Source: a virus
Reading direction: 5' to 3' (one strand)
Length of the DNA stretch: 62,021 nt
IMG/VR virus record: IMGVR_UViG_3300030109_004637
Coordinates: 1-62,021 of that record
The notes under the pieces are model-generated. The model saw nothing but the letters and a program-made list of their open reading frames with translations, was not told the origin of the DNA and did no database searches. Positions 29,253 to 60,379 of this stretch are shown here, in pieces. Each line of letters starts with the position of its first letter. Positions within the stretch are counted from its first letter, which is position 1. The position numbers and the translations under genes were made by a program.

Positions 29253-29426
29253 TTACTTCTTTTTCTTCTTCATCATCATAGCGCCATTTTTCTTCTTCAT
29301 CATAGCACCATTCTTTTTCTTCATCATTGGACCATTTTTCTTCTTCATCATAGGTCCGTTCTTCTTTTTCATCATGGGTCCATCATCTTTTTTTTTCATC
29401 ATTGGACCTTTCTTTTTTTTCATCAT
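29253..29426 (-). CDS. MMKKKNGP tandem-repeat microprotein
   Basis: A 57-residue protein made almost only of Met, Lys, Asn, Gly and Pro. It consists of six units of the form MMKKKxGP/A (variants MMKKKKGP, MMKKKDDGP, MMKKKNGP twice, MMKKKNGA twice) and a closing MMMKKKKK. The DNA repeat of about 24 bases is diverged at third positions while the amino acids are kept, which argues for a translated, selected protein. Net charge is very high. Function unknown: a nucleic-acid condensing peptide, a Met-rich metal binder or a membrane-active peptide are all possible. Confidence 0.65.
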   Translation of the reverse strand: MMKKKKGPMMKKKDDGPMMKKKNGPMMKKKNGPMMKKKNGAMMKKKNGAMMMKKKKK

Positions 29427-30134: not shown

Positions 30135-30173
30135 AACAATAATATTACATGTAAAATCAATTTTTTAAAAAAG

Positions 30174-30220
30174 TATGACAATAGCCCCTTACTCTAATAC
30201 TATATATAGCTAATGTCACA
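30174..30220. repeat. 47-bp dyad element, copy 1
   Basis: Begins TATGACAATAG and ends CTAATGTCACA, an imperfect inverted repeat around a core CCCCTTACTCTA. The same element occurs at 31629-31676 and, inverted, at 38590-38636. On the minus strand it is followed by a T-run. It sits at the divergent point between early and late genes. Confidence 0.75.
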
Positions 30221-30403
30221 GTTTAGATGTGTTGAAAATTTGTGTTATACTATATATATATGACAATAAAAAAATAAAAAAATGGTTTTCGTTTACCCGG
30301 GGCCCCTAATATGATACATATGCATGCAGATGTTTTTGCCTTTTATAAAAAAATTTGTAGAATATTTTAGGTATTGCCCAGGGGTGGGCCGTGTATAGCA
30401 TTC
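30221..30403. other. Divergent intergenic region (30135-30546), non-coding core
   Basis: The 412 bases between the first minus-strand and first plus-strand genes hold no convincing gene. Besides dyad copy 1 and two promoters, this core contains a run ATACTATATATATATGACAAT followed by an A-rich stretch, an isolated GC block ACCCGGGGCCCC (30295-30306), a CATATGCATGCA palindrome-rich spot and a GCCC-AGGGGT-GGGC hairpin (30376-30389) ahead of a GTGTATAG octamer. A replication origin or late-gene promoters could lie here, but neither can be shown from sequence. Confidence 0.5.
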
Positions 30404-30435
30404 ACAAACTAAATAATAGATATGATAGATAATAT
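30404..30435 (+). promoter_or_regulatory. Early promoter motif P1
   Basis: ACAAACTAAATAATA, a 9-base gap, then GATAATAT. All eleven plus-strand copies share this spacing. It is tandem with P2, 66 bases apart. Confidence 0.7.
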
Positions 30436-30469
30436 ATATAAGTTTTTTTAAATAAATATTATTTTACTC

Positions 30470-30501
30470 ACAATTATAATAATAATATATAGAGATAATA
30501 T
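30470..30501 (+). promoter_or_regulatory. Early promoter motif P2
   Basis: ACAATTATAATAATA, 9-base gap, GATAATAT, ending 45 bases before the ATG of the 78-residue gene. Confidence 0.75.
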
Positions 30502-30546: not shown

Positions 30547-30783
30547 ATGACTACTAACAATGTAACAACAAAGCGATTCGTGATACGTAAAACATTAATT
30601 GGTACTAATACCATAATAACATTTACCACTAACAAAGGTAAGAAGGTTTCATATGATCACGATAAGGTTTATACTGCTCACAAGAAAAGGTTTGATAGTA
30701 TGCCATGTTTTGAGAAATATAAATCTTACACTAACACTAACAACTTACCTGTGTTTGTTAGGAATATGAAGGAGCTTGTTTAA
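30547..30783 (+). CDS. Small early protein A1
   Basis: A 78-residue basic protein with a conserved core: LIGTNTIITF, YDHDKVY, SMPCFEKYKSYTNTNNLPVFVRN. It is a close paralogue of the 82-residue gene at 31774; the two align end to end with about 60% identity by eye. It has its own promoter (P2) and its own terminator hairpin that overlaps its stop codon, so it forms a single-gene transcript. Probably an immediate-early host-takeover protein, by position; no known domain. Confidence 0.65.
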   Translation: MTTNNVTTKRFVIRKTLIGTNTIITFTTNKGKKVSYDHDKVYTAHKKRFDSMPCFEKYKSYTNTNNLPVFVRNMKELV

Positions 30784-30795
30784 GCTTCTTCTTTT
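30768..30795 (+). terminator. Terminator of A1
   Basis: GAAGGAGCTT paired with AAGCTTCTTC (10 bp with one G-T pair), loop GTTT, followed by TTTT. The stop codon of A1 lies in the hairpin. Confidence 0.75.
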
Positions 30796-30799
30796 ACTC

Positions 30800-30831
30800 A
30801 CAATTAAAATAATAATAAATAAAGATTATAT
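30800..30831 (+). promoter_or_regulatory. Early promoter motif P3
   Basis: ACAATTAAAATAATA, 9-base gap, GATTATAT, starting five bases after the A1 terminator and 33 bases before the next ATG. Confidence 0.75.
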
Positions 30832-30864
30832 AATTAAATAAATTAAATAAATAAATATACTACT

Positions 30865-31116
30865 ATGATAAATTATAATAATAAGATGAAGGAGTTACTA
30901 GGTAACAATCTCGAGATGATGATTAAAAACAGAGCGTTTGATAGCTGCTCATACATTGATGAAGATAGAGATCAGATCTACTGCATAATAAAGCATACCT
31001 TCGATCTGTATAAGGATAATGACTTTGAAGATATGCTAGACGGTGCTGACGAAGTCAGTGAGTTGTATGACCGACAAACCGAACTATATGAAACGCAGCT
31101 ACTTTTTACTAAGTAG
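30865..31116 (+). CDS. Small acidic early protein B1
   Basis: An 83-residue acidic protein ending LYKDNDFEDMLDGADEVSELYDRQTELYETQLLF. The motif LY.N.DF..MLDGA...SE......ETQL is shared with the 88-residue gene at 31263, showing an old duplication. Own promoter P3 and own hairpin at the stop codon. Acidic early proteins are often DNA mimics or RNA-polymerase binders, but nothing here proves that. Confidence 0.6.
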   Translation: MINYNNKMKELLGNNLEMMIKNRAFDSCSYIDEDRDQIYCIIKHTFDLYKDNDFEDMLDGADEVSELYDRQTELYETQLLFTK

Positions 31117-31120
31117 TTGC
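31095..31120 (+). terminator. Terminator-like hairpin of B1
   Basis: GCAGCTACTT paired with AAGTAGTTGC (10 bp, one G-T pair) with loop TTTACT, overlapping the stop codon of B1. No long T-run follows, so strength is uncertain. Confidence 0.55.
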
Positions 31121-31149
31121 TTCGGCCTGTGGGCTGTGTATAGTAACTC

Positions 31150-31181
31150 ACAATTAAAATAATATATATAGAAGATTATAT
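31150..31181 (+). promoter_or_regulatory. Early promoter motif P4
   Basis: ACAATTAAAATAATA, 9-base gap, GATTATAT. A GTGTATAG octamer lies just upstream (31136-31143). The leader to the next ATG is long (about 75-80 bases) and can form GGC-GATTTT-GCC or the alternative TTTTGC-C-GCAAAA. Confidence 0.7.
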
Positions 31182-31262
31182 ATATAATTAAAATAAATAA
31201 ATAATTAATACCAACAATAAATCAATTGGCGATTTTGCCGCAAAACCTTAAACCCCATAATT

Positions 31263-31529
31263 ATGGAGCCGTTTGAGTTGAAAAATCCTGCATCACCTGC
31301 AGGTATGTTAGTTGCTGAGTTTGGCAACTGTGTGTTTAATTTTCTGGATCATGAAGGTCTGCTAACTATCGAGTGCGAACGAGTGCACGATGGTAAGTTG
31401 TATGCGACTTTCACTCATGACCGTAGCTTATACGAGAATGAGGATTTCGTCATGATTCTGGACGGTGCTGAGGCTACCTCAGAAATGACCACCGACCAAG
31501 GCTGGATAGAAACCCAGCTAATAGCTTAA
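31263..31529 (+). CDS. Small acidic early protein B2
   Basis: An 88-residue acidic protein, paralogue of B1 in its C-terminal half (LYENEDFVMILDGAEATSEMTTDQGWIETQL). Its coding DNA is clearly richer in G+C (about 45% in the middle) than the surrounding small genes (near 30%), suggesting a different origin or different expression demand. Own promoter (P4) and own palindromic 3' end. Confidence 0.6.
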   Translation: MEPFELKNPASPAGMLVAEFGNCVFNFLDHEGLLTIECERVHDGKLYATFTHDRSLYENEDFVMILDGAEATSEMTTDQGWIETQLIA

Positions 31530-31547
31530 GCTAACTAGCTAAGCTGG
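31514..31547 (+). terminator. Palindromic 3' structure of B2
   Basis: CCAGCT pairs with AGCTGG and an inner perfect palindrome TAGCTTAAGCTA (31522-31533) contains the stop codon. No T-run follows; a second small hairpin ATTGC-TCCCC-GCAAT lies at 31558-31572. Confidence 0.5.
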
Positions 31548-31628
31548 CTAAGTAACCATTGCTCCCCGCAATGTGTATAGCAGACCTATGCCCTTTCGGT
31601 TGGAAAGTATACTTAACATATTTAACAC

Positions 31629-31676
31629 TGTGACAATAGCCTGTTACTCTATAATAATTAATAGCCTAATGTCACA
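31629..31676. repeat. 48-bp dyad element, copy 2
   Basis: TGTGACAATAG ... CTAATGTCACA around a CCTGTTACTCTA core. On the plus strand it is followed by eight T residues, so this copy could end transcripts coming from B2. Confidence 0.75.
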
Positions 31677-31701
31677 CTTTTTTTTACTTGTGTATAGCAT
31701 C

Positions 31702-31733
31702 ACAATCGAAATAATAATGGCTACAGATAATAT
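31702..31733 (+). promoter_or_regulatory. Early promoter motif P5
   Basis: ACAATCGAAATAATA, 9-base gap, GATAATAT; a GTGTATAG octamer is four bases upstream. Drives the A2 gene. Confidence 0.75.
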
Positions 31734-31773
31734 ATATAATTAAATTAAATTTTTAACTTAAACATATTTAACT

Positions 31774-32022
31774 ATGGCTACTACTAAAATTAAAACAACT
31801 ACTAAAACTACTAACAGGTTTATAATTGCTAAATCATTAATTGGCAAGAATACTATAATTACCTTTAAAAATAAAAAAGGTGATGACTGTACTTACAATC
31901 ATGATAAAGTATATAATACTTTAAAAGAAAGATTTGAAGCAATGCCATGTTTTCAGAAGTATAAAAGCTATACTAATTCCAATAATCTACCAAAGTTTGT
32001 TAGAAATATAGAATTTGCATAA
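31774..32022 (+). CDS. Small early protein A2
   Basis: An 82-residue basic protein, close paralogue of A1: LIGKNTIITF, YNHDKVY, AMPCFQKYKSYTNSNNLPKFVRN. The conserved PCF.KYKSYTN.NNLP.FVRN core suggests a folded domain with a fixed partner. Own promoter P5 and terminator. The A1-B1-B2-A2 order implies duplication of a two-gene block with inversion of order or two separate duplications. Confidence 0.65.
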   Translation: MATTKIKTTTKTTNRFIIAKSLIGKNTIITFKNKKGDDCTYNHDKVYNTLKERFEAMPCFQKYKSYTNSNNLPKFVRNIEFA

Positions 32023-32034
32023 GTTTAGTAGTCA

Positions 32035-32070
32035 GGGAGTAAGGCCAGTGCCTGCTCTCTGCTATTTTTC
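32035..32070 (+). terminator. Terminator of A2
   Basis: GGGAG with CTCTC outside and GGC-CAGT-GCC inside form a hairpin, followed by GCTATTTTTC. Confidence 0.65.
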
Positions 32071-32228: not shown

Positions 32229-32230
32229 TT

Positions 32231-32262
32231 ACAAACATAATACGTTTCACTACAGATAATAT
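32231..32262 (+). promoter_or_regulatory. Early promoter motif P6
   Basis: ACAAACATAATACGT, 9-base gap, GATAATAT; 35 bases before the ATG at 32298 and likely serves the run of small genes to about 33.2 kb. Confidence 0.75.
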
Positions 32263-33085: not shown

Positions 33086-33272
33086 AAAAGAAAAAGAGAT
33101 ACTAGAGGTGGCACTAATCCAATACAAAGAAGAGTGCTATACACTTTGGCATGCAGGTAAAAAAGATACTGCAGAGTGGCAAGATCAAGCACTAATGATA
33201 GAAGCAATAAGAAGAAAAATGTACAAAAGTAAAACAGAGTACAAAGTAGATGTACCTGCACAATTTAAATAA
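33072..33272 (+). CDS. Small helical protein
   Basis: A 66-residue charged helical protein (LTEKEKEILEVALIQYKEECYTLWHAGKKDTAEWQDQALMIEAIRRKMY). Looks like a two-helix hairpin. Promoter motif P7 overlaps its last codons. Function unknown. Confidence 0.55.
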   Translation: MKLTEKEKEILEVALIQYKEECYTLWHAGKKDTAEWQDQALMIEAIRRKMYKSKTEYKVDVPAQFK

Positions 33273-33291
33273 TATTAACTATGGATAATAT
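33260..33291 (+). promoter_or_regulatory. Promoter motif P7 overlapping two genes
   Basis: ACAATTTAAATAATA, 9-base gap, GATAATAT. The gap contains the ATG of the next frame and GATAATAT encodes its residues 2-4, so transcripts from P7 would start at or near the second in-frame ATG (33296). Confidence 0.6.
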
Positions 33292-33454
33292 AAATATGAA
33301 ACATAAAAAATCAAATGTTAATGTAACTAAGTTTGGCACACTAATACATTCACTAAACGATGGGTATTACTATACTGAAATAGTAGGTGTACATGCTGAA
33401 TCTCAAGACAAGTACAATGCAAAAATTAGATTTAAATATAAAAGTTATGTATAA
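33281..33454 (+). CDS. Small paralogous protein C1
   Basis: A 57-residue protein starting MDNINMKHKK. Its C-terminus YYYTEIVGVHAESQDKYNAKIRFKYK aligns with YYEAVGVQAKSEDKQNAQIKFIYE in the next gene, so the two are tandem paralogues. A start at codon 6 (33296) is an alternative if P7 is used. Confidence 0.55.
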   Translation: MDNINMKHKKSNVNVTKFGTLIHSLNDGYYYTEIVGVHAESQDKYNAKIRFKYKSYV

Positions 33455-36116: not shown

Positions 36117-36290
36117 ATGGAACAAAAGATACCGAAACAAATTGATACAATGTATTATAATGATTCTGAAACTAGAGTATGCAAATACAATTTTGTATTC
36201 TCTAATAAAATAAGAGACTGGATTTATAGTGCTCAAAGAGTAACAAAGAACGGTTACAAACACAAATTTAATACGACAATAGATGGATAA
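36117..36290 (+). CDS. D1 paralogue without zinc ribbon
   Basis: A 57-residue protein sharing KYNFVFSNKIRDWI with the preceding gene but lacking the cysteine ribbon. The pair looks like a duplication followed by loss or gain of the zinc module. Its last codons hold promoter P9. Confidence 0.55.
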   Translation: MEQKIPKQIDTMYYNDSETRVCKYNFVFSNKIRDWIYSAQRVTKNGYKHKFNTTIDG

Positions 36291-36293
36291 TAT
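36262..36293 (+). promoter_or_regulatory. Promoter motif P9 overlapping two genes
   Basis: ACAAATTTAATACGA, 9-base gap, GATAATAT. As at P7, the gap ends in ATG and GATAATAT encodes residues 2-4 of the next frame (MDNI), with another in-frame ATG at codon 6 (36298). Confidence 0.65.
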
Positions 36294-36501
36294 TGATATG
36301 GACGACGAACGTAATATAAAGTTAAATAAAAATTTTATGGTCAATGCTATTATAACAATGTCTCTTAGCTCAAATCATATGTCACTAGGTAACATAGATA
36401 ATGTTAAATACATGTATAAAAATATGACTATAGATGAAGTTAAAAAAGATTTTGAAAGATTAAAAGATGTATATAAAAACAGAAGTTATGAGAAAATTTA
36501 A
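36283..36501 (+). CDS. Small hypothetical protein
   Basis: A 72-residue protein (MDNIDMDDERNIKLNKNFMVNAIITMSLSSNHMSLGNIDNVKYMYKNMTIDEVKKDFERLKDVY). Start may instead be codon 6 if P9 is active. Helical; function not recognised. Confidence 0.5.
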   Translation: MDNIDMDDERNIKLNKNFMVNAIITMSLSSNHMSLGNIDNVKYMYKNMTIDEVKKDFERLKDVYKNRSYEKI

Positions 36502-38589: not shown

Positions 38590-38636
38590 TGTGACAATAG
38601 GTTATTATAATAATAGGGTAAGGGGCTAATGTCACA
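38590..38636. repeat. 47-bp dyad element, copy 3 (inverted)
   Basis: TGTGACAATAG ... GGGTAAGGGGCTAATGTCACA; the core is the reverse complement of copies 1 and 2. It holds the ATG of the helix-turn-helix gene (38629), so a protein bound here would control that gene. Confidence 0.75.
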
Positions 38637-39255
38637 TAGGAATCTTAATTATTTACATCGAAACAGAGTAGCATATAAGATGTTTCCTACTTCAGATAAA
38701 CCTACAAAAACTTTTACTTGGGGTTATTTTTTTGAAAACGGTACGCATCAATGCTATGATCTGTTTCGTAGTAAAGCCAAGATTACATCTTATAAGTCTC
38801 TTAAATGGCACATGTATGTTTTATATTATATTAATCCGCATGTATCAGATATTAGAATGAAAAAAATAATAGACTACATATGTAACAAAGACAATGGATT
38901 CATTACATTTACAGTTAAGGACAATATTAAAGACAGTATGATATCTGATGTTCTTGCTTCTGATTTAAATGAACCACCAAAAAATAAATTAAGAAAAGTT
39001 ATATTCAAAGACTCTACAGGTTTATCTACAAAACAAAAATTAAAGATAGTTGGAGAGTTAATAGGTAAAACTAAAATAGTTAATAATGATGACATTTACG
39101 AGTGCATGTTAGAAATTAATAACTCAAACAGAAGAATTACAATAGCTAATTTAGCTAAAATATTAGGTTGTTCCTCAAGAACCATACATAGAAATATGGA
39201 TAAACAACTAAAAAGAGAAAAGGATATACTTAATATTCAAAATGAAGAAATATAA
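38629..39255 (+). CDS. Helix-turn-helix protein, possible initiator or regulator
   Basis: A 208-residue basic protein with a C-terminal helix-turn-helix (ITIANLAKILGCSSRTIHRNM, about 172-192). The N-terminal part (TFTWGYFFENGTHQCYDLF; ISDVRMKKIIDYICNKDNG) looks like phage replication-initiator or replisome-organiser proteins. Its start codon lies inside dyad copy 3, suggesting that it binds this dyad and regulates itself. It overlaps the sigma gene by 14 bases. Confidence 0.55.
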   Translation: MSHRNLNYLHRNRVAYKMFPTSDKPTKTFTWGYFFENGTHQCYDLFRSKAKITSYKSLKWHMYVLYYINPHVSDIRMKKIIDYICNKDNGFITFTVKDNIKDSMISDVLASDLNEPPKNKLRKVIFKDSTGLSTKQKLKIVGELIGKTKIVNNDDIYECMLEINNSNRRITIANLAKILGCSSRTIHRNMDKQLKREKDILNIQNEEI

Positions 39256-39994
39256 TATAAATACATATAAGATATATAAAGAAGATGTAAAACAAACTGT
39301 ATCGTCTTTACCTGATATAGATTATGAAAGATTAACCAGAAACCAATTAATAACCAAGTTTATGCCTCTTGTAGAAAATATAGCAAAAAAGTTTTCAACT
39401 GCATCTCAAGCATCAGGTACGTTAGACATACTAGATATAATACAAGAAGGTAGCGTTGGTTTAATTAAAGCAATAGACAGAATAGACTGGAACGTATTTA
39501 ATTTATCAGAAGATAAAGATAAGACTATGAAGTCTTTCTTATCTAAAAGAATAAGAGGTGCAATTAGAAGATCAATAGATATGTATAGAGGTGATATGCG
39601 TATACCTGAACATAAGTTAAATGATATACGCAAGAATTTTGGTAAAGACGAAAAAATGGTTGCTATGTTTTTTAATTCTATATTTTTATCAACAGATGAT
39701 TATGTTGATCGTGGATTAATAAATAATATAGAAGATAAATCAGATCCATATAATATGGATTTACTAAATGCTTATTTATCATCATTACTTAGAAGACATT
39801 TAAACAGTAAAGAATATCAAGTGCTTAGATTAAGTTATGGATTAGACTGTGAAAAACAATCAGCACAAGCTATAGCAGATAAATTAGGACTAAAAGGTTC
39901 TAGTGCTTTTGTTAGAGTATCTCAACTTAAAAGACAAGCAGTTGACAAGTTAATAAACAATGTAGACCCTGAACAAGTATTAGATTATATGTAG
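39242..39994 (+). CDS. Phage sigma-70 family factor
   Basis: A 250-residue sigma factor. Region 2 is clear (LITKFMPLVENIAKKF; DILDIIQEGSVGLIKAIDRID; SKRIRGAIRRSIDMYRGDMRIPEH, about 35-125) and region 4 follows (LNSKEYQVLRLSYGLDCEKQSAQAIADKLGLKGSSAFVRVSQLKRQAVDKL, about 188-240); region 3 is replaced by a short linker and region 1.1 is absent. It should redirect host RNA polymerase. Whether it reads the ACAA-GATAATAT promoters or the late genes is open; P11 lies directly after it. Confidence 0.85.
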   Translation: MKKYNINTYKIYKEDVKQTVSSLPDIDYERLTRNQLITKFMPLVENIAKKFSTASQASGTLDILDIIQEGSVGLIKAIDRIDWNVFNLSEDKDKTMKSFLSKRIRGAIRRSIDMYRGDMRIPEHKLNDIRKNFGKDEKMVAMFFNSIFLSTDDYVDRGLINNIEDKSDPYNMDLLNAYLSSLLRRHLNSKEYQVLRLSYGLDCEKQSAQAIADKLGLKGSSAFVRVSQLKRQAVDKLINNVDPEQVLDYM

Positions 39995-39997
39995 TTT

Positions 39998-40029
39998 ACA
40001 AATTAAATACGAATACCAAATGATAATAT
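39998..40029 (+). promoter_or_regulatory. Promoter motif P11 of the replication operon
   Basis: ACAAATTAAATACGA, 9-base gap, GATAATAT, 23 bases before the ATG of the ERF gene. No further copy is seen in the following 8.6 kb of plus-strand genes. Confidence 0.8.
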
Positions 40030-51766: not shown

Positions 51767-54700
51767 TTACTTGTTTTTGTTTTTTTCTAACTTTTTTTGT
51801 TTAAGATATTCTCTTATCCAATTACCTTCTTCCATATAATCCATGCCTTCAGTCATTTTTTCTATATATGCTTTTTCTTCAGCTTTTTTCTTAGCTATAT
51901 TTCTTGCTCTTGTTTCTTTTGCTTTTTCAACACCTAATCTTTTTCTAGTTTTAGCACCTTCGGCTTTTATTTTTTCATGTTCTTCATTTTCAAGATTTAA
52001 ACTCCAACCTGGCCAACCAGCTATTAATGCTATTTTTTGCCAAGACTTAACGTAACTTTCATTAGCTAAACGAAGATTTTTTATTTTAGTAATAGCTCTA
52101 TCTACTGGTATGTTAAAAAATGCAGAAACTAAATTGCCATAAACTTCGTATCTAGGACTATCAAACTCATAGCCTTTTACAGCTATAATATCTCTATCAT
52201 AATAATTAATATTATGCGCTTTATAAATTTTTCTAAATTTAGATCCAATAGTAGGTGCTACATTTGCTATTTCTATTGCAGTATAAAAGTGATCTGCTTT
52301 AAAAGGTCCTTTTTTCTCTTGTTCATAATATTTTAAAATTACATTTTTTAAAGTTGCAACTATAGCACCTTTATAACCAAGTCCTCTTAATATTGTATCT
52401 GACATGCCATTAGCAACTCTAATAATTTTGCGTTTTTCTTCTTCAGAAGTTTCATCATCATCGTCATATAATAAAGTAAATAAAGCACTTTGAGCTGCAT
52501 TGAATATAAGATTTTGAACTATTCCATAATATATTATTTTAGATATATGTGTTTTCCAAGCTCCTTCTTTAAATGATCTAACGCCATCACCTCTTTTATT
52601 TATAAGATCTAAAATTGATTTTTTTATTCTTCTATTATATTGCAAAGCAACATTTTGATATGTTAAGAAAAATCTAGCTACAGGATTTCTTTGCTCTTGA
52701 GATAATCTTGATGGATCAGCTGATTGCTGAGCTGAATCTGTTTCTTCAGAAAAGTCTTCAAACGCTTTAGTTTCTGCTTCTTTTTTATTAAAACCTTTTG
52801 ACAAGTAAGTGTTTACTCTATTTCTATAAAAAGAAGCACCACCAAAAGATATTGCAATAGCATCAGCAGCTTGAGTTGGAGTAAAACCTATTCTCAATAA
52901 ATATCTTAAAGCACTTTTATATTTGCTTTTAGAAGTAGCAACACTACTAGCTAATTCTGCTGCTTGTACATCTATATTTAAACCTTTTCTACGTTGTTTA
53001 AGTTTATCAGACATAACAATCATTTCAAAATCTGCCCAAAATTGCTTTTGATTAGCAAACGCCTTGGCAGCTTGTAAAAAGTTATTATCACTCCAATTTA
53101 AATAATTTATACTTGATATAAGCTGAAGAGATGCAGACCTCATGTTTATAAACATAGTAACACCAGTAGATGAATTTAACCAATTAGCAAATTCATTAGC
53201 TACTCTATTATTACCAAAGTTACGACTAGTACCATTTTCCATGGCATATAAAGAATCTTCTAATGCTTCTCTAAATCTAGTACCATATATTGCTTCAATT
53301 TTGTTTAAGTTTTCTTTACTAAATATTATTTTTCTATTTTCTATAAACTCACTTAAAAACTTTTTTCTACCAACTTTTTCAATAACATTGTTTATATCAC
53401 TAGCAACAGTTTCAAATGACCAATCAGGAGTAGGTTTTAAATAACCTTCTGGTAAACCAGTAATTACACCAAGACCTCTAGCAAAACGTTGTAGTTTTTG
53501 ATCATTAGCTACTGTAAAAAATAAACTGTTTATTTCACTATTACTTAATCCAAGAATATCTAAATTAGTTTCATTTGCTTTAGCATTATATTTCCACAAA
53601 TAAACTCTTATAGCTTGATCATAAGTAAAATCACTACCTGGTATTTTTTTACCTAACTTTTTAGATACTTCAGGAAATTTTCTTTTAAGTACTTTGTATT
53701 CATCTTCAATTTTTTGTTTTGCTGAATCAATACTTGCAATACCTCTTTTATATGGTCTATTAAGCATTTCTTCAAAAAATTCTTTTTGTTGATCACCTAA
53801 TTTACCTTCACCTAAAAAAGAATACATTAGACCCATAAAATCATCAGCTGATGCTGGTAAGAAAAAATCGTACTTACCTATATCTCTACCTTTTTGTCTA
53901 GCTAAAGTTTGAGATAAATTATCATCAGCAGCTATACCTTTATTTTGTTCTATTATTTTATTAAATACAGCACTAGCATCTTCTGCTTGTTTTGATCTCT
54001 TTGGATAATGTCTATTATTACCATTTCTTCTTATTTTTTCTTGAGTTTCTTTTTTACTTAAAGATTCTTGAGATTGTTGTAAATCTTTTCTGTTAGATAT
54101 TCTTAAATCTATTTTAACATACACTCTAGAAGTTTTAACTGTAGGTGTAGGTAAAACGAATTTAGTACCTTTTTTAAATGGTACTTTAACATCTCTAGAT
54201 CCTGATCTTTTTATAGATAAATTTCTAGTTCCTTTAAACGGTTTATTATCTTTTGCTGCAAAAAGTGGAATAAGTCCATTAAAAAAATTTGTATCAAAAG
54301 CATAAAGATCTTTGCCATTTGGTACTATAAGTTTAACACCTTCATAAACTCTTCTTATTAATTCATCTGTTTCGTTTTGATTAGGTGTATCTTTTATAAT
54401 TAAAGTTTTACCCGCATTTTCAAGTGCTTTTTGTAAAGCGTCTGTATGAAAATCACCTCTAAAAGTTCCATAAAAGTCTTTCTTTTTATTAAGTACCTCA
54501 CCTGTTTTATCTAATTTTGTGTTTTTATATTGTTGTGGTAAATTATCATGGTACTGATTAAATATATTTTCCCAATATTCTTTATTTTCAATAAACTCAT
54601 TTATTATCTCTTCAGATATTACATCACCATTTTTATCTTTAATTTCAATTTTTTCTCCTTTAACACCTTTTAAAAGAGTTTCATCAAGAACAAATTTATT

Positions 54701-57700
54701 TCCTTGTTTTTTAAATTTAATTTTATCTATTGGTATTACAAAACCGGAAAATATACCTCCCATAGAAGCTTTAATTTCTATTCTACTAGAATATAATTGC
54801 TCACCTTCTTTTACTACTTCATATTCAATATCACCTTTTATAGGATTGTTTGATGCTGTTGGATTATTTAGTACATTAATCTTTATATCAGGACTATCTC
54901 TATTAAATATATTAGCAGATGACATAAACTGCTCATGAACATACTTTTCAGTAACATTACCATTTCTTTGCCCTGCGTTATCTAATAATTTATTATTGTA
55001 TGCTAAATCTAAAATAAATGCTTTATTAAAATCACTTAAATTATTTAAGTATTTTAATTTATCTGTTGCTTCGGTAAATCCTTTAGCTTGTTTCTTTAAT
55101 TGAGCTAAACTTGTTTTAGATATATCTTTTATTATTTCATCATCTGTTAGTTGACTTAAATTAATCCTATGATAATTTTTATCTTTAGTAAATATATTTT
55201 TTAATATATTTTCTTTGTCTATATCTTCCCAACTTTCGTTATTAACATATATTAGTTTACCTTCTTCATCTAATTGTCTAAATTGTTCAAGTTCATTTAA
55301 AATTTCAACAGCGTCTTGATTATTTATATTATATTTTCTTATATCTCTTTGTAATTGTTTATTTAAATCACCGATTGTTTGATCAACTTTAGCATCTGTT
55401 AGTAAATTTTGATTATTAGCAAATGCAGATATTATACTAAATTCATCGCTTTCATTAAGCTCTTTAATTTGTTGTTTCTTTTTATCAGGTGTAATATCAT
55501 CATTTGATATTTTATTTAACTTTGCTGAATATTCATCAAATTTGTTAACTTCTTCTTGAAATAATTCATAGTTTATTTCACCAGATATTTCTCTCCACAA
55601 AGGTTCATTTTTCATTTGTGGCCAAGCTTTTGGACCTGATTTAAAATGATTAATCCATTGTTCATCAGATATATCAATTTTTCTTCTAAGTCTTTGTCTT
55701 CCAGTAGTATTACCTTGTAATTCAGCTACATCTTTATCACTTCTAATAAAATCAATATTACCTGGTTTAGTACCAACTACTTGATTAGGCTTCCAATCAG
55801 TAGTAAAATTACCGGTAGGATTACCCTGACTATCAACGCCAGTTATAACAAATTTTTCTATTGCAAAAGGAAAAGCTTTAGCTAAGTAAGTTGTAGTTAA
55901 ACCTTCTATTATTGATTTTTTATTATCTAATAAAAACTTTTCATAGGATTTTTTATTATCTTTTTTAGGCCAATTCATGGCATTTTTAATTAATACCCAA
56001 GAATCAGTTACTTTAACTTTAGATTTTACTTTAGTTTTACCTGCTTTACTTTTAACAACATTACCTTTTTCATCTCTTACTATTTCAAACCATCTACCTG
56101 TTGCTTGTTCTTTTAAATAAGCTAAAAAAGAATCTTTATCAAACTCAAATAAAGCCTTATTGTTTTTAACAATGTTAAGCAATATATTTTTTAATCCTGA
56201 TATAGTAGTTTTATCTTCAAATTTTACAGCATCTTTAAGTGGTTTTCTAGTTTTACCTAACTCACCTCTTCTACTTATTATTTTTTCTTGCTCTGTTTTT
56301 TCTCTTTGTTTTGTTTCTTCAACTGTTTCTTGTATAGAAGTATCTGGTACTTGAGCTGTTATTGTTTGACCTTCTTTAGCATCTATTTCTTTATCTCTTG
56401 ATACAGTTTTAACTTGCCTCATTTCAGCACCAATAATATCACCTATTATGAGACTTAATTTTCCTCTAAATGCTGTTTGATCTTGTTTGCTACCACCAAT
56501 TAAATAACCACCAAGTCCTGCTGGATTAGTAGGATCATAAGCTGTAAGAAGATTTTCTACAACTTTATCATTTACTTTTTGAATTAAATCAGGAGTTGGA
56601 GTTACACCTCTTCTGTTTAGTTCATTTTTTATAGAACCATCAAGTATACCATCAACACTTATAGCTGTAAATGCATCTGCTATATCTCCTGATTTCCAAC
56701 TTTCTTTAGTTGAATTTTCAGGTACTAATTCATTTAATGTTTGTACTATTCTACTTTTACGTGGTTCTTCTTTATCTGTTATAACAGCTGCTCTAGGTTT
56801 TTGAGGCAAAATAACATTTTCATCTGTACCTCTTGATGCTTTATTAAATCTTTTAACAAAGTTATAAACTTTTGCTCCTTCAGATTTTTTAATTGCAAAA
56901 GAAGAAGGCAATACTTTATTAACGATATTTACAAGATTATCTACTAATGCAATATCTGTACTCATATCTTTATTAGTAAATACATCAGATAAAACATTCA
57001 TTGCCTCTTCAAAATAAGCAGGATCTTTTACTCCATTTTCATCAACGTAGTCATTTTCTAATCTTTGTTCTATTGTAGCTGCTAAATCTGGATTTGATTT
57101 TCTTAAAAATTGTAATAATGATTCTCCAAATCTGTTTGCCTCAGAGTTATCACCATTAGTAATTCTTTTAATTAAACCATGTAATATTTCGTGATGACCA
57201 ACTCCAATGCTTGCGGTTTGTATTGATCTATTTTTATCAATAACTAATGTATTATCTGATAAAGCTTCACCTGAAGATTTGCTTTTAATAAAATCATCAA
57301 CAACATTTTTTTGATTTTTATTTAGTTTTTTGTATGAATCTTTTTTAAATACTTTTACAGCAAACTCATCTTTATTATCTGTTTGTTCAAGCTCAATGAG
57401 TTGCATATCAAGACCAGGATACTTTTCATTTAAAAAATTAATGTAATTTTTAGCTGATTTTATTTCTGTATCATATTGTCCTTTTAATCTTTCAATAAGA
57501 TAATTATTTTTAGCCGCTTTTTCTATTTCATCTTTAGTTTTATTTTTAGGATCTTTTTTTGCTTCTTTATTTCTTTCGCGTTTTTCTTTGCTAGATAAAT
57601 TATCCCATTCATTTAAAATTGTGTTAACAAAAGTAGAATTTACAGCAAGTCTGGCTATTGTATTTTGTTTAATAAACTCTTTTTCATCAATTGATATTGA

Positions 57701-60379
57701 CTTTGCTTTTCTACCTCTTCTTGTATCAGGAGTTGCTAATTCATCTTTAACAGCTACAGCTTGATTAACTTTTAGTTTAGCTTTTTCTATTAATTTTTTA
57801 CCTTCAGATGGTGTTAAAGTACCAAGACTAACATCTCTATTAACTTGTTGTGCATACAATAAATTTTTTCTAATTATTTTATTTTGATTACCTATTTCTA
57901 TTAAATCTTCTTTTGTTATTCTTCCTTCTCTAATATCTTTTAGTAATCTTTGCTCTAATTGCTTGTTTTCCATTACAAGCTCATTAACTAGCTCTTGAAC
58001 TCTTGGAGGTAAATCTTCTAATTTACTACCAAGAGGTATCAACTCTGATATTTCTTTTTGTATTTCTTGTGATCTTTTAGCTAAAGCACTTGATCTATTT
58101 TCTAAAAATATAGCTCTATTTACTATACTAAGTCCACCATAAGAACCTAAACCTATACCAGGTATAAGTGCTTGCATGGCAACCTCATCAAGATCTTCAA
58201 AAATATTTACGTCTTTTTCTAATAAATATTTTTCACCTAACTTAACAAAAAATTCTGTAAAAACTTCGCTAGTTGGATCACCAACAACTCCACGAGCAAG
58301 AGCTGCTCCTGCTGCTTTAAATGCTTTATTAATATCTTGAATATTTTGAGATTTTGCAGCGTGTTTAAAAGATTTTAAAATAGAAACACCACCAATAGCA
58401 GCTTCCCAAAAAATTGCTTGTGTAAAAGCATTTGTCTCTTGACTTAGTAATTGCGCTTCAGATAAACTTAATTTTTTAAAATCTTCATCTATTTGTTTTT
58501 GTATAGCTTCTCTTTGTAAGTTATTATTGGTATTATTTAGTAAATCAATATTGGCACTAATTCTTTTTTTAGCACTGATTTCACCTAAATGAGCTTGAAC
58601 TCCTTGATCTCCTGCTTCTAATAATCCAAACAATGGTAAAGAATAATAACCTCCACCAGCTGCTAAACCAATTGAAAAAGCACCATTAAGAGATGCAGTA
58701 GCAAGCCAAGCTAATTGATCATCACTTGTTTTTGCTTCACTCCACTTAGGAGAATATTGAAATAAAGATAATTCATCATTAATATCCTTATTTAATAAAG
58801 CGGCAGCTTCTATAGAGTTTCTTTGCTGTGATATACTTGGTTGTCTTTCTACGGTAATAACGTTACCAGCCTCATCTACGTCAAAACCTATTGTTGGTTC
58901 AGCACTTGTTCTTGCTCCAGTCATAGTAGTTTTTAAACTTGGTATAATTGTACCAACTGAGTCAAAAATAACTCTACCTACATTTGCTGCTTCATATAAA
59001 ATATTAGATGCTCCACTTTTAATTATACTAGAAAATTGTTCTAATCTATCATAATTTTTACCGGCATGTTCTAAGGCTAAATCTGCATATTTTATTTTTT
59101 TATTAAAATCATCAACATCTTCAATAAATTTTTTATCTAAAAATTTAATTTTTTCTTGATCACGCATTATGTTATTAAACGTAGATAAAATATCTTTAGC
59201 TTGAGCATTACGTTGATCTAACTCTTGTTGATCGTTAAACTTATAGTTTTCAGGATATTTTTCAGCAAATTCATTAATTGTTTTATTAAAAGAATTGTAT
59301 TTGTTTTCAATTTTTAATTTATATTTTTTAATATTAGCATCTGCATCTATAAGTCTATCTGGCTCTTGATTAAGCAAAGAATATTCTATAGCTTCAGCAT
59401 AACCTCTTTGCTTATCATTTAAGTTTCTAAATATACCACTAGCTACTCTATCTTTATTTACAAGATAGTTATCTTGAATATATTTATTTACTTCTTCTTC
59501 TGTATAGTCATCTTCAAAATGTTCTCCCTTTAACCATAGTTTATATTTATTTTTTTCTTTATCTGTTAGCATTGGATCTTCAGGTTTACGTCCTGGAGCT
59601 CCGTATCCAAATGTTACTGGAGAATAGTTTTCAAAAAACTTTTGATCTTCAAATTTATCTTCAAGATCTTTATCCATCATATCTTTAGCTTTATCAGGTG
59701 TTAACCTAATCTCACTTATAGTATTAGCAAAATTGTCAGCAAACTCTGGCATTTCTTTTTTTGCTTTTAAAATATAATCTATATCAGCGTTTTCAAATAT
59801 AAAATTATTAATTCTTGATAACTCATTTTGATTAAATTCTTTATCACTATCAACATCAAAAGTAATTGATTTAGATGGAGTTGATAATCTTTGGGGTACA
59901 GGACCAGAAAAGCCAAATCCTCCAGTTTGTGATCTTTTTTTAGTAGATATAGTTATAGATTCACCGATGCCGGTTTGCTCAACATCAAAGCCATAATAGC
60001 TTAACTTTGAACTTAATTTTTCTTCAAAACTCTTTTCAGATAATTTTAAATTTTCATCTTTTATATAAAATTTTAATTCACGTCTAAGATCTTCTCTTGA
60101 TTTTTTATCAGTTGTTAAAACATCTACAAAATCTTTATCACTTGCATTTACTAACTCATAATTACTAAATCTTGATTTAAAAGTATCTAAGTCATTAGCA
60201 TTAACTTTTACTTTATTTCCAGTTTTAGGTGAAATAAAGTCTAACATTATTGGTTCTTCTTTTTCTTCTTCAGATTTTAATTTTGCATCAGGAAATCTTT
60301 TTAAAAAACTATCAACAGAAGATTCATTAACTTTTACTTCATTACCACCACTAAGTATATAAATAAATTCTTTATCCAT
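51767..60379 (-). CDS. Giant internal virion protein with embedded HExxH motif
   Basis: A 2870-residue, largely helical, Lys/Asp-rich protein. Residues 1-75 hold two copies of a short repeat (LSGGNEVKVNESSVDSFLKRFPDAKL and SPKTGNKVKVNANDLDTFKSRFSNYEL). Hydrophobic glycine-rich segments lie near 580-790. Near residue 1062 is GHHEILHGLIKRI, an HExxH zinc-protease motif, followed by acidic helices. The C-terminal 400 residues have a RNPVARFFLTYQNVALQYNR region seen in podovirus inner-core proteins. It is comparable to T7 gp16 in place and probable role: ejected with DNA into the cell envelope. Confidence 0.65.
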   Translation of the reverse strand: MDKEFIYILSGGNEVKVNESSVDSFLKRFPDAKLKSEEEKEEPIMLDFISPKTGNKVKVNANDLDTFKSRFSNYELVNASDKDFVDVLTTDKKSREDLRRELKFYIKDENLKLSEKSFEEKLSSKLSYYGFDVEQTGIGESITISTKKRSQTGGFGFSGPVPQRLSTPSKSITFDVDSDKEFNQNELSRINNFIFENADIDYILKAKKEMPEFADNFANTISEIRLTPDKAKDMMDKDLEDKFEDQKFFENYSPVTFGYGAPGRKPEDPMLTDKEKNKYKLWLKGEHFEDDYTEEEVNKYIQDNYLVNKDRVASGIFRNLNDKQRGYAEAIEYSLLNQEPDRLIDADANIKKYKLKIENKYNSFNKTINEFAEKYPENYKFNDQQELDQRNAQAKDILSTFNNIMRDQEKIKFLDKKFIEDVDDFNKKIKYADLALEHAGKNYDRLEQFSSIIKSGASNILYEAANVGRVIFDSVGTIIPSLKTTMTGARTSAEPTIGFDVDEAGNVITVERQPSISQQRNSIEAAALLNKDINDELSLFQYSPKWSEAKTSDDQLAWLATASLNGAFSIGLAAGGGYYSLPLFGLLEAGDQGVQAHLGEISAKKRISANIDLLNNTNNNLQREAIQKQIDEDFKKLSLSEAQLLSQETNAFTQAIFWEAAIGGVSILKSFKHAAKSQNIQDINKAFKAAGAALARGVVGDPTSEVFTEFFVKLGEKYLLEKDVNIFEDLDEVAMQALIPGIGLGSYGGLSIVNRAIFLENRSSALAKRSQEIQKEISELIPLGSKLEDLPPRVQELVNELVMENKQLEQRLLKDIREGRITKEDLIEIGNQNKIIRKNLLYAQQVNRDVSLGTLTPSEGKKLIEKAKLKVNQAVAVKDELATPDTRRGRKAKSISIDEKEFIKQNTIARLAVNSTFVNTILNEWDNLSSKEKRERNKEAKKDPKNKTKDEIEKAAKNNYLIERLKGQYDTEIKSAKNYINFLNEKYPGLDMQLIELEQTDNKDEFAVKVFKKDSYKKLNKNQKNVVDDFIKSKSSGEALSDNTLVIDKNRSIQTASIGVGHHEILHGLIKRITNGDNSEANRFGESLLQFLRKSNPDLAATIEQRLENDYVDENGVKDPAYFEEAMNVLSDVFTNKDMSTDIALVDNLVNIVNKVLPSSFAIKKSEGAKVYNFVKRFNKASRGTDENVILPQKPRAAVITDKEEPRKSRIVQTLNELVPENSTKESWKSGDIADAFTAISVDGILDGSIKNELNRRGVTPTPDLIQKVNDKVVENLLTAYDPTNPAGLGGYLIGGSKQDQTAFRGKLSLIIGDIIGAEMRQVKTVSRDKEIDAKEGQTITAQVPDTSIQETVEETKQREKTEQEKIISRRGELGKTRKPLKDAVKFEDKTTISGLKNILLNIVKNNKALFEFDKDSFLAYLKEQATGRWFEIVRDEKGNVVKSKAGKTKVKSKVKVTDSWVLIKNAMNWPKKDNKKSYEKFLLDNKKSIIEGLTTTYLAKAFPFAIEKFVITGVDSQGNPTGNFTTDWKPNQVVGTKPGNIDFIRSDKDVAELQGNTTGRQRLRRKIDISDEQWINHFKSGPKAWPQMKNEPLWREISGEINYELFQEEVNKFDEYSAKLNKISNDDITPDKKKQQIKELNESDEFSIISAFANNQNLLTDAKVDQTIGDLNKQLQRDIRKYNINNQDAVEILNELEQFRQLDEEGKLIYVNNESWEDIDKENILKNIFTKDKNYHRINLSQLTDDEIIKDISKTSLAQLKKQAKGFTEATDKLKYLNNLSDFNKAFILDLAYNNKLLDNAGQRNGNVTEKYVHEQFMSSANIFNRDSPDIKINVLNNPTASNNPIKGDIEYEVVKEGEQLYSSRIEIKASMGGIFSGFVIPIDKIKFKKQGNKFVLDETLLKGVKGEKIEIKDKNGDVISEEIINEFIENKEYWENIFNQYHDNLPQQYKNTKLDKTGEVLNKKKDFYGTFRGDFHTDALQKALENAGKTLIIKDTPNQNETDELIRRVYEGVKLIVPNGKDLYAFDTNFFNGLIPLFAAKDNKPFKGTRNLSIKRSGSRDVKVPFKKGTKFVLPTPTVKTSRVYVKIDLRISNRKDLQQSQESLSKKETQEKIRRNGNNRHYPKRSKQAEDASAVFNKIIEQNKGIAADDNLSQTLARQKGRDIGKYDFFLPASADDFMGLMYSFLGEGKLGDQQKEFFEEMLNRPYKRGIASIDSAKQKIEDEYKVLKRKFPEVSKKLGKKIPGSDFTYDQAIRVYLWKYNAKANETNLDILGLSNSEINSLFFTVANDQKLQRFARGLGVITGLPEGYLKPTPDWSFETVASDINNVIEKVGRKKFLSEFIENRKIIFSKENLNKIEAIYGTRFREALEDSLYAMENGTSRNFGNNRVANEFANWLNSSTGVTMFINMRSASLQLISSINYLNWSDNNFLQAAKAFANQKQFWADFEMIVMSDKLKQRRKGLNIDVQAAELASSVATSKSKYKSALRYLLRIGFTPTQAADAIAISFGGASFYRNRVNTYLSKGFNKKEAETKAFEDFSEETDSAQQSADPSRLSQEQRNPVARFFLTYQNVALQYNRRIKKSILDLINKRGDGVRSFKEGAWKTHISKIIYYGIVQNLIFNAAQSALFTLLYDDDDETSEEEKRKIIRVANGMSDTILRGLGYKGAIVATLKNVILKYYEQEKKGPFKADHFYTAIEIANVAPTIGSKFRKIYKAHNINYYDRDIIAVKGYEFDSPRYEVYGNLVSAFFNIPVDRAITKIKNLRLANESYVKSWQKIALIAGWPGWSLNLENEEHEKIKAEGAKTRKRLGVEKAKETRARNIAKKKAEEKAYIEKMTEGMDYMEEGNWIREYLKQKKLEKNKNK

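What the first reader, a model, noticed from the sequence alone, without database searches (positions are those of the whole stretch)
30547..32070. A-B-B'-A' block: four duplicated small genes, each with its own promoter and terminator
Genes at 30547 and 31774 (A1/A2) are clear paralogues (shared PCF.KYKSYTN.NNLP.FVRN), and 30865 and 31263 (B1/B2) share LY.N.DF..MLDGA...SE......ETQL. Each has its own ACAA-GATAATAT motif and a hairpin overlapping its own stop codon (strong with T-run for A1; GC hairpin for A2). Single-gene autonomous transcripts in series are unusual for a phage and suggest independently tuned first-wave proteins that meet host targets.
Basis: partly seen in the sequence, partly recalled or inferred. 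Interest (0 to 1): 0.72.

Follow-up and report, generated by a model that had tools for sequence, protein, structure and literature searches.

The report
Marine phage early genes, shared promoter
A stretch of four small paired genes in an uncultured marine phage is the front end of an early gene region in which each short transcription unit starts from its own copy of one strict 33-base promoter; the promoter and the first protein recur across a large family of uncultured ocean phages, and neither matches anything known here.

Summary
A1/A2 (65% identity) and B1/B2 (39% over 44 residues, acidic) are real paralogue pairs. Each gene starts behind a 33-bp element, (C/T)ACAA..AAATA(C/A)..N9..GATAATAT, with an invariant 25-bp offset. 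The window has 11 copies, all on the + strand between 30403 and 40029; shuffled sequence scores far lower. The same element precedes 113 of 123 A genes in related viral contigs and marks the early strand of 12 of 12 genomes examined. Its left half is recoded genome by genome: at 11 orthologous promoters a close relative changed C3 to T in ten and A/T25 to G in all nine that lacked it.

Own terminators are partly supported: good for A1, A2 and B2, none clear for B1. Single-gene units are confined to this block; later promoters drive 4-6 genes. Protein A is the only accessory early gene kept across the clade (at least 468 relatives in IMG/VR; none in 50,697 phage records, Pfam, PHROGs or PDB). 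B is lineage-specific. I read the block as a duplicated promoter-plus-A unit with B genes between, part of an early host-takeover array. What reads the promoter is unknown: it does not resemble the flavobacterial sigma-A promoter.

The parts
30403..30435 (+). Early promoter copy P1 (upstream copy before A1): CACAAACTAAATAATAGATATGATAGATAATAT
   Evidence: 33-bp motif
30469..30501 (+). Early promoter copy P2, directly before A1
30547..30783 (+). Gene A1, 78 aa, basic (pI 10.1), family A
   Evidence: relatives
30768..30791 (+). Intrinsic terminator of A1 (10-bp stem over the stop codon, then TTTT)
   Evidence: also scored
30799..30831 (+). Early promoter copy P3, before B1
30865..31116 (+). Gene B1, 83 aa, acidic (pI 4.3), family B
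31149..31181 (+). Early promoter copy P4, before B2
31263..31529 (+). Gene B2, 88 aa, acidic (pI 4.2), family B
   Evidence: AlphaFold2 model pLDDT 88.6
31629..31676 (+). Dyad TGTGACAATAGCC-N-GGCTAATGTCACA followed by T8: terminator-like end of the B2 unit and start of the duplicated A2 unit
31701..31733 (+). Early promoter copy P5, before A2
31774..32022 (+). Gene A2, 82 aa, basic (pI 9.9), family A
   Evidence: AlphaFold2 model pLDDT 84.3
32029..32064 (+). Intrinsic terminator of A2 (-18.5 kcal/mol, then TTTTT)
32230..32262 (+). Early promoter copy P6 (unit of several small genes)
33259..33291 (+). Early promoter copy P7
34694..34726 (+). Early promoter copy P8
36261..36293 (+). Early promoter copy P9
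37483..37515 (+). Early promoter copy P10, operon that carries the HTH and sigma genes
39997..40029 (+). Early promoter copy P11 (held out of the first matrix), before the Erf-like gene
   Evidence: Erf
30174..30220 (.). Dyad copy at the divergent boundary between late leftward and early rightward genes
38590..38636 (.). Dyad copy lying over the start codon of the HTH gene
38629..39255 (+). HTH protein, 208 aa, conserved with the sigma gene; candidate binder of the dyad
39242..39994 (+). Phage sigma factor, 250 aa (sigma-70 regions 2 and 4)

Best explanation
The block is the leading part of the early region of a phage of Flavobacteriia. Shown by sequence: a phage-specific promoter class, one 33-bp bipartite element with invariant spacing, is placed before each short transcription unit; A is the clade's core early protein and duplicates repeatedly in other lineages; B is a lineage-specific addition. 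Read from the anatomy: the block arose as a duplicated unit (dyad, TGTATAGCA, promoter, A gene) with two diverged copies of an acidic gene B between the two A copies. Inferred: these units are transcribed at once on entry, at strengths set one by one through promoter and terminator, and make small host-takeover or anti-defence proteins; A, small and basic with an unassigned fold, probably binds nucleic acid or the host transcription machinery. Inferred with less confidence: the promoter is read by a phage-specified factor already in the cell at the start (virion-delivered; about 40%), while the sigma factor and its HTH partner, made at the end of the early region, switch transcription to the late strand.
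For: Motif strength and one-strandedness. Early-strand restriction in relatives (G010 by eye). De novo gapped k-mers find ATAC-N12-ATAAT in 42 of 144 early upstream regions and 0 after shuffling, and no comparably strong motif on the late strand. 113 of 123 A genes in further contigs have GATAAT within 170 bp upstream, nearly all as the 33-bp module. Concerted recoding at 11 orthologous promoters between the window and G004: C1>T in 9 of 9, C3>T in 10 of 11, A/T25>G in 9 of 9, with A2, A4, A10-A13 and the GATAATAT block essentially kept. A is the only gene of the 30.5-37.5 kb accessory region found in all 11 fetched relatives. Recurrent A duplication: 35 of 77 further loci carry 2-4 copies, and copies within L012, L015 and L017 cluster together. 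Each A copy of the window has the dyad, TGTATAGCA and promoter in that order. Promoter unlike flavobacterial sigma-A: TAnnTTTG is not enriched in early upstream regions (11 observed, 8.4 expected), while flavobacterial sigma-A reads TAnnTTTG (PMC9723704). A late-strand motif ATGTAAnTAT (9 of 108 late regions, 0.35 expected, 1 of 144 early) sits after the boundary dyad in several genomes and is a candidate target of the sigma factor.
Against: No transcript data, so timing and start sites are inferred. No gene with RNA-polymerase homology was found, so the virion-delivered reader is a conjecture. A has no known relative or fold match, so its target is a guess. B1 lacks a clear terminator, and only 21% of A genes have a textbook terminator within 75 nt, against 1.5% in shuffles. 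The sigma gene co-occurs with the motif, which fits a rival reading.
Confidence: 0.6

Rival explanations
1. The phage sigma factor (39242-39994) with host core polymerase reads the 33-bp element: GATAAT acts as the -10 box and the left half as the -35 region, in a self-amplifying loop.
For: The sigma gene is present in 11 of the first 27 A-carrying contigs, among them nearly all of those above 60 kb, and in 22 of 24 further ones, but absent from four cultured relatives without the motif. The spacing between the two halves is sigma-70-like. Bipartite promoters read by a phage sigma with host core are known: phage 7-11, GTAAtg-(16)-aCTA (PMC8948821).
Against: The sigma gene lies downstream of copies of the same promoter, so it cannot start the cascade unless it is delivered. 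Its region 4 helix is unchanged between G004 and G005 (95.2% identical overall) although the left half of their promoters differs. A different late-strand motif is available for it.
Confidence: 0.3
2. A host sigma factor of the natural host reads the element directly, as in most phages that use host polymerase early.
For: No phage RNA polymerase was recognised in the genome. A host switch could explain the genome-by-genome recoding of the left half.
Against: The element does not match the known flavobacterial classes, TAnnTTTG, its TAnnTTGY variant, sigma-54 or the CGT-type ECF box (PMC9723704). Early upstream regions show no TAnnTTTG enrichment.
Confidence: 0.2
3. The repeated intergenic element is a replication-origin iteron or other binding site, not a promoter.
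For: The cumulative GC-skew minimum lies near 30.5 kb, and the repeats are AT-rich and clustered.
Against: Copies run over 9.6 kb, all on one strand, most of them 23-81 bp before an ATG, at the head of transcription units in every relative, with terminators directly before some copies. The GC-skew change also follows gene orientation.
Confidence: 0.04
4. B antagonises or buffers A: the acidic B proteins bind the basic A proteins as an electrostatic partner, or B acts alone as a DNA mimic against host defence. (A reading of B's role, compatible with the main explanation.)
For: A carries about +9.7 charge, B -10 to -13, at similar size, encoded as A-B-B-A.
Against: Strong charge of either sign is common among the other early proteins here. 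A occurs without B in most of the clade. A and B profiles are not homologous. B gave no significant fold match.
Confidence: 0.12

Closest known systems
Early gene arrays of SIRV2 and other archaeal viruses with one shared early regulatory sequence (PMC11065993)
   Same: Many small, mostly single, unannotated early genes each behind one highly conserved promoter sequence, with an HTH regulator (Aca8) proposed to repress them later.
   Different: Archaeal TATA/BRE promoter read by host factors; here a bacterial-type element of unknown reader that is recoded genome by genome. No anti-defence activity has been tested for A or B.
SPO1 host-takeover gene cluster (PMC6873191 abstract; promoter details from my own knowledge)
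   Same: Cluster of small early genes acting on host functions.
   Different: SPO1 early promoters are strong host sigma-A type (own knowledge); the element here is not host-like. No sequence similarity was tested.
phiEco32-like phage 7-11 sigma-dependent promoters (PMC8948821)
   Same: Fixed-spacing bipartite phage promoter; the phage encodes a sigma factor.
   Different: Those promoters are late and the early ones are host sigma-70; here the strict element is on the early strand and lies upstream of the sigma gene.
crAss-like phages phi14:2 and crAss001 with virion-packaged RNA polymerase (described in PMC8375218)
   Same: Phages of Bacteroidota; an early operon of small genes; a giant late-cluster protein; the window has a crAss muzzle domain.
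   Different: No RNA polymerase homologue found here; the giant 2870-aa protein has no database relative and no conserved DxDGD motif.
Cultured or named relatives by portal protein: Flavobacterium elemo phages, Maribacter phage Panino, Cellulophaga phi38:1, Podoviridae sp. MW202828
   Same: Late gene cluster with portal; GroEL annotated in elemo, phi38:1 and MW202828; Erf-like gene annotated in elemo and Panino; divergent layout.
   Different: They lack the 33-bp motif, the sigma gene and the giant C-terminal domain (the motif scan of phi38:1 and Panino covered the parts fetched); no A relative was found in the phage collection that holds them.

Membership tests
Flavobacterial sigma-A promoter (TTG / TAnnTTTG) | TAnnTTTG box at -7 | tested here: not met
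   The motif ends in GATAATAT; TAnnTTTG in 11 of 144 early upstream regions against 8.4 expected; consensus from PMC9723704
E. coli-type sigma-70 promoter | TTGACA-N17-TATAAT | tested here: not met
   Consensus scan found no excess over shuffles: 76 found, 82 expected
Sigma-factor-type bipartite promoter in general | Two conserved blocks at fixed spacing before gene starts, one strand | tested here: met
Phage with virion RNA polymerase (crAss-like, N4-like) | RNA polymerase gene, single-subunit or DxDGD type | tested here: not met
   Pfam/PHROG scans of the large and unassigned ORFs, PDB profile search and motif search of the giant protein found none; the PF00940 search had no positive control, so absence is not proved
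Phage sigma factor (phiEco32/7-11 type) | Sigma-70 family homology | tested here: met
   Regions 2 and 4; which promoters it reads is not testable with these tools
Host-takeover or anti-defence early gene array | Small genes expressed immediately after infection, acting on the host | not testable with these tools
   No expression or interaction data; no PADLOC match for A and only a weak one for B1
Known protein family for A | Match to Pfam, PHROG, NCBIfam, PDB sequence or fold | tested here: not met
Known protein family for B | Match to Pfam, PHROG, NCBIfam, PDB sequence or fold | tested here: not met
   (best Foldseek E 0.12, TM 0.48)

The most novel reading that the evidence does not exclude
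An abundant clade of uncultured marine phages starts infection with its own, so far unrecognised transcription initiation machinery, delivered by the virion, that reads a 33-bp promoter unlike any known host promoter; the recogniser and the whole set of 6-13 promoters per genome are recoded together as lineages split.
Probability: 0.25. Interest if true: 0.85.

Novelty: new variant of a known kind. Interest (0 to 1): 0.66.

Why it matters
The motif gives a one-line test that finds and delimits the early genes of a large, uncultured group of ocean phages, and marks hundreds of unknown small proteins as candidates for host takeover or anti-defence. The concerted recoding of all promoters of a genome at two or three defined bases is a natural experiment in promoter and recogniser co-evolution.

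Tried and rejected
Chance repeats in AT-rich DNA: rejected by shuffles and by the held-out site. Host-like promoters in early regions: none above expectation. A and B as one superfamily: weak tblastn overlap not upheld by profile comparison. Giant 2870-aa protein as an RNA polymerase: no homology, no conserved DxDGD, though a conserved HExxH is present. Sigma region 4 or the HTH helix as the changing recogniser of the left half: both essentially unchanged where the motif changes. Known fold for A or B: Foldseek found nothing significant. A in cellular genomes: 15 contigs binned to many unrelated taxa, most simply read as stray phage contigs. B charge as evidence of pairing with A: other early proteins are equally charged. 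The 95 of 96 sites with 25-bp offset are partly circular, because the sites were found with a fixed-length matrix; searches are the unbiased tests. Papers on crAss-like early promoters: none found; the phi14:2 polymerase paper is not held.

Full report
WHAT WAS CLAIMED.

CHECK. A1 and A2 are 65% identical over 66 residues. B1 and B2 are 39% identical over 44 residues of the C-terminal half. With a free spacer of 15-28 bp, the pattern CA(A/C)AA..GAT(A/T)ATAT occurs nine times in 62 kb, always with 20 bp between the halves and always on the + strand. A matrix finds 11 sites scoring 28.9-41.3 while shuffled genomes peak at 14.5; the site at 39997 was not used in training. All lie between 30403 and 40029. 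Terminators are good for A1 and A2, plausible for B2 through a dyad with eight T and absent for B1. One gene per promoter holds for A1, B1 and B2; A2 is followed by one small ORF, and later promoters of the series drive 4-6 genes.

SETTING. The window is an IMG/VR virus record. Its portal protein is closest to phages of Flavobacterium, Cellulophaga, Maribacter and Tenacibaculum. Rightward genes from 40 kb encode Erf, exonuclease, primase-helicase, thymidylate synthase and ribonucleotide reductase; leftward genes encode virion proteins and GroEL. The block is the first part of the rightward strand, next to the divergent boundary; 'early' is inferred from this layout.

RELATIVES. A is absent from 50,697 phage records and has no Pfam, PHROG, NCBIfam or PDB match. 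The A1-B1-(B2)-A2 order is kept in the window's close relatives; elsewhere A stands alone or in 2-4 copies, without B. In twelve genomes compared gene by gene, A is the only gene of the variable 30.5-37.5 kb region kept in all. Twelve residues of A are invariant in 35 sequences. AlphaFold2 gives a confident small fold (pLDDT 84.3) without a match in PDB or viral models. B also folds well in the best two models (88.6 and 86.4; the other three are between 60 and 67), again without a significant match.

PROMOTER CLASS. Genome-specific matrices find 6-13 copies in 11 of 12 genomes, nearly all on the early strand within about 10 kb; single hits on the other strand in G027 and G009 look like chance. 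The twelfth, G010, shows the same 33-bp geometry by eye. Free enumeration of gapped k-mers puts this motif first on early upstream regions (42 of 144 against 0 shuffled) and nothing comparable on late ones. Upstream of A genes in further contigs the module is almost always there, 113 of 123. The right half GATAATA is nearly constant. The left half differs by genome and is largely uniform within a genome: CACAA..AAATA, TATAAAATAAATAC, TGCAGACA..TACGA, CACGGACTT, TACAAACTAAATACGA. Between the window and its relative G004, 11 orthologous promoters changed together: C1>T in 9 of 9, C3>T in 10 of 11, A/T25>G in 9 of 9. This is what is expected if one recogniser reads all sites and its specificity shifts. 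The four named relatives tested lack the motif in the parts fetched.

WHAT READS IT. Not settled. The element lacks the flavobacterial sigma-A box TAnnTTTG (PMC9723704), and that box is not enriched in early regions. A separate late-strand motif, ATGTAAnTAT, is enriched (9 of 108 late regions, 0.35 expected) and in several genomes lies about 30 nt after the boundary dyad; I take it as a candidate sigma target. No RNA polymerase gene was recognised, but the 2870-aa late protein, whose C-terminal 750 residues are kept in 17 clade contigs and absent from the tested isolates, has no database relative at all, so a virion-delivered factor cannot be excluded.

ORIGIN OF THE BLOCK. A 45-48 bp dyad TGTGACAwTAG..CTAwTGTCACA occurs at the boundary (30174), over the start codon of the HTH gene (38590; it explains why nearly all HTH proteins begin MSH) and between B2 and A2 (31629). 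Both A copies follow the order dyad, TGTATAGCA, promoter, A. The simplest reading is duplication of this unit, with B1 and B2 sitting between. Copies within L012, L015 and L017 cluster in the tree, so duplication recurs; the window's A1 and A2 are an older, unresolved split.

COMPARISON. Functionally the layout resembles the SIRV2 early array, where small single genes share one promoter and include anti-CRISPR genes (PMC11065993), and the SPO1 host-takeover cluster (PMC6873191). It is not a member of a known promoter class by the tests above. I therefore call it a new variant of a known kind.

CONFIDENCE. Promoter class real: about 0.95. Early timing: 0.75. Duplicated-unit origin: 0.7. Host-directed function of A: 0.5. 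Reader: virion-delivered phage factor 0.4, phage sigma 0.3, host factor 0.2, other 0.1.

Noticed in passing
window 30174-30220, 31629-31676, 38590-38636; also G004, G010, G013, G021, G027 and others: Conserved 45-48 bp dyad TGTGACAwTAG..CTAwTGTCACA; in the window and other complete relatives one copy lies over the start codon of the HTH gene and one at or near the early/late boundary; candidate operator of the HTH protein.
   Followed up: partly
window 30392, 31574, 31691 and reverse copies at 33135, 34958, 40307, 48693: The 9-mer TGTATAGCA / TGCTATACA is enriched (7 against 0.7 expected; up to 14 in relatives) and often sits just upstream of an early promoter, in either orientation. Meaning unknown.
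   Followed up: partly
L015, L118, L123, L138, L149 and other CACGG-type contigs, directly after the promoter: Transcripts seem to begin with a 5'-terminal hairpin (e.g. GAAGATTA-ATAA-TAATCTT, GAGCTTAATAATGAGCTC) that varies in sequence but keeps pairing: 41% of 64 sites against 2.7% shuffled; absent in the window's type.
   Followed up: partly
late-strand upstream regions; window about 30135-30155 (-): Late-strand motif (C/T)ATGTAAnTAT, in several genomes about 30 nt after the boundary dyad; candidate late promoter.
   Followed up: partly
window 33259-33300 and 36261-36300: Some early promoters overlap the annotated ATG; the likely start lies a few bases after GATAATAT, suggesting leaderless transcripts.
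   Followed up: no
window 51767-60379 (-): 2870-aa late protein with conserved HExxH and a C-terminal domain of about 750 residues found only in this clade; no Pfam, PHROG, PDB or isolate relative.
   Followed up: partly
L050/L051 (G011, G010): These two relatives carry a second, stronger sigma-70 region 2 protein of about 300 aa in the early region.
   Followed up: no
window 29253-29426 (-): Short ORF of MMKKKNGP repeats next to GroEL.
   Followed up: no
G004:C1:6016-8163: The giant late gene of this relative reads with three TAA stops in frame in the matched stretch.
   Followed up: no
L169-L183: A genes occur in metagenome bins labelled as many unrelated taxa (Rhodobacteraceae, Woesearchaeota, Aliivibrio); probably mis-binned phage contigs.
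   Followed up: no
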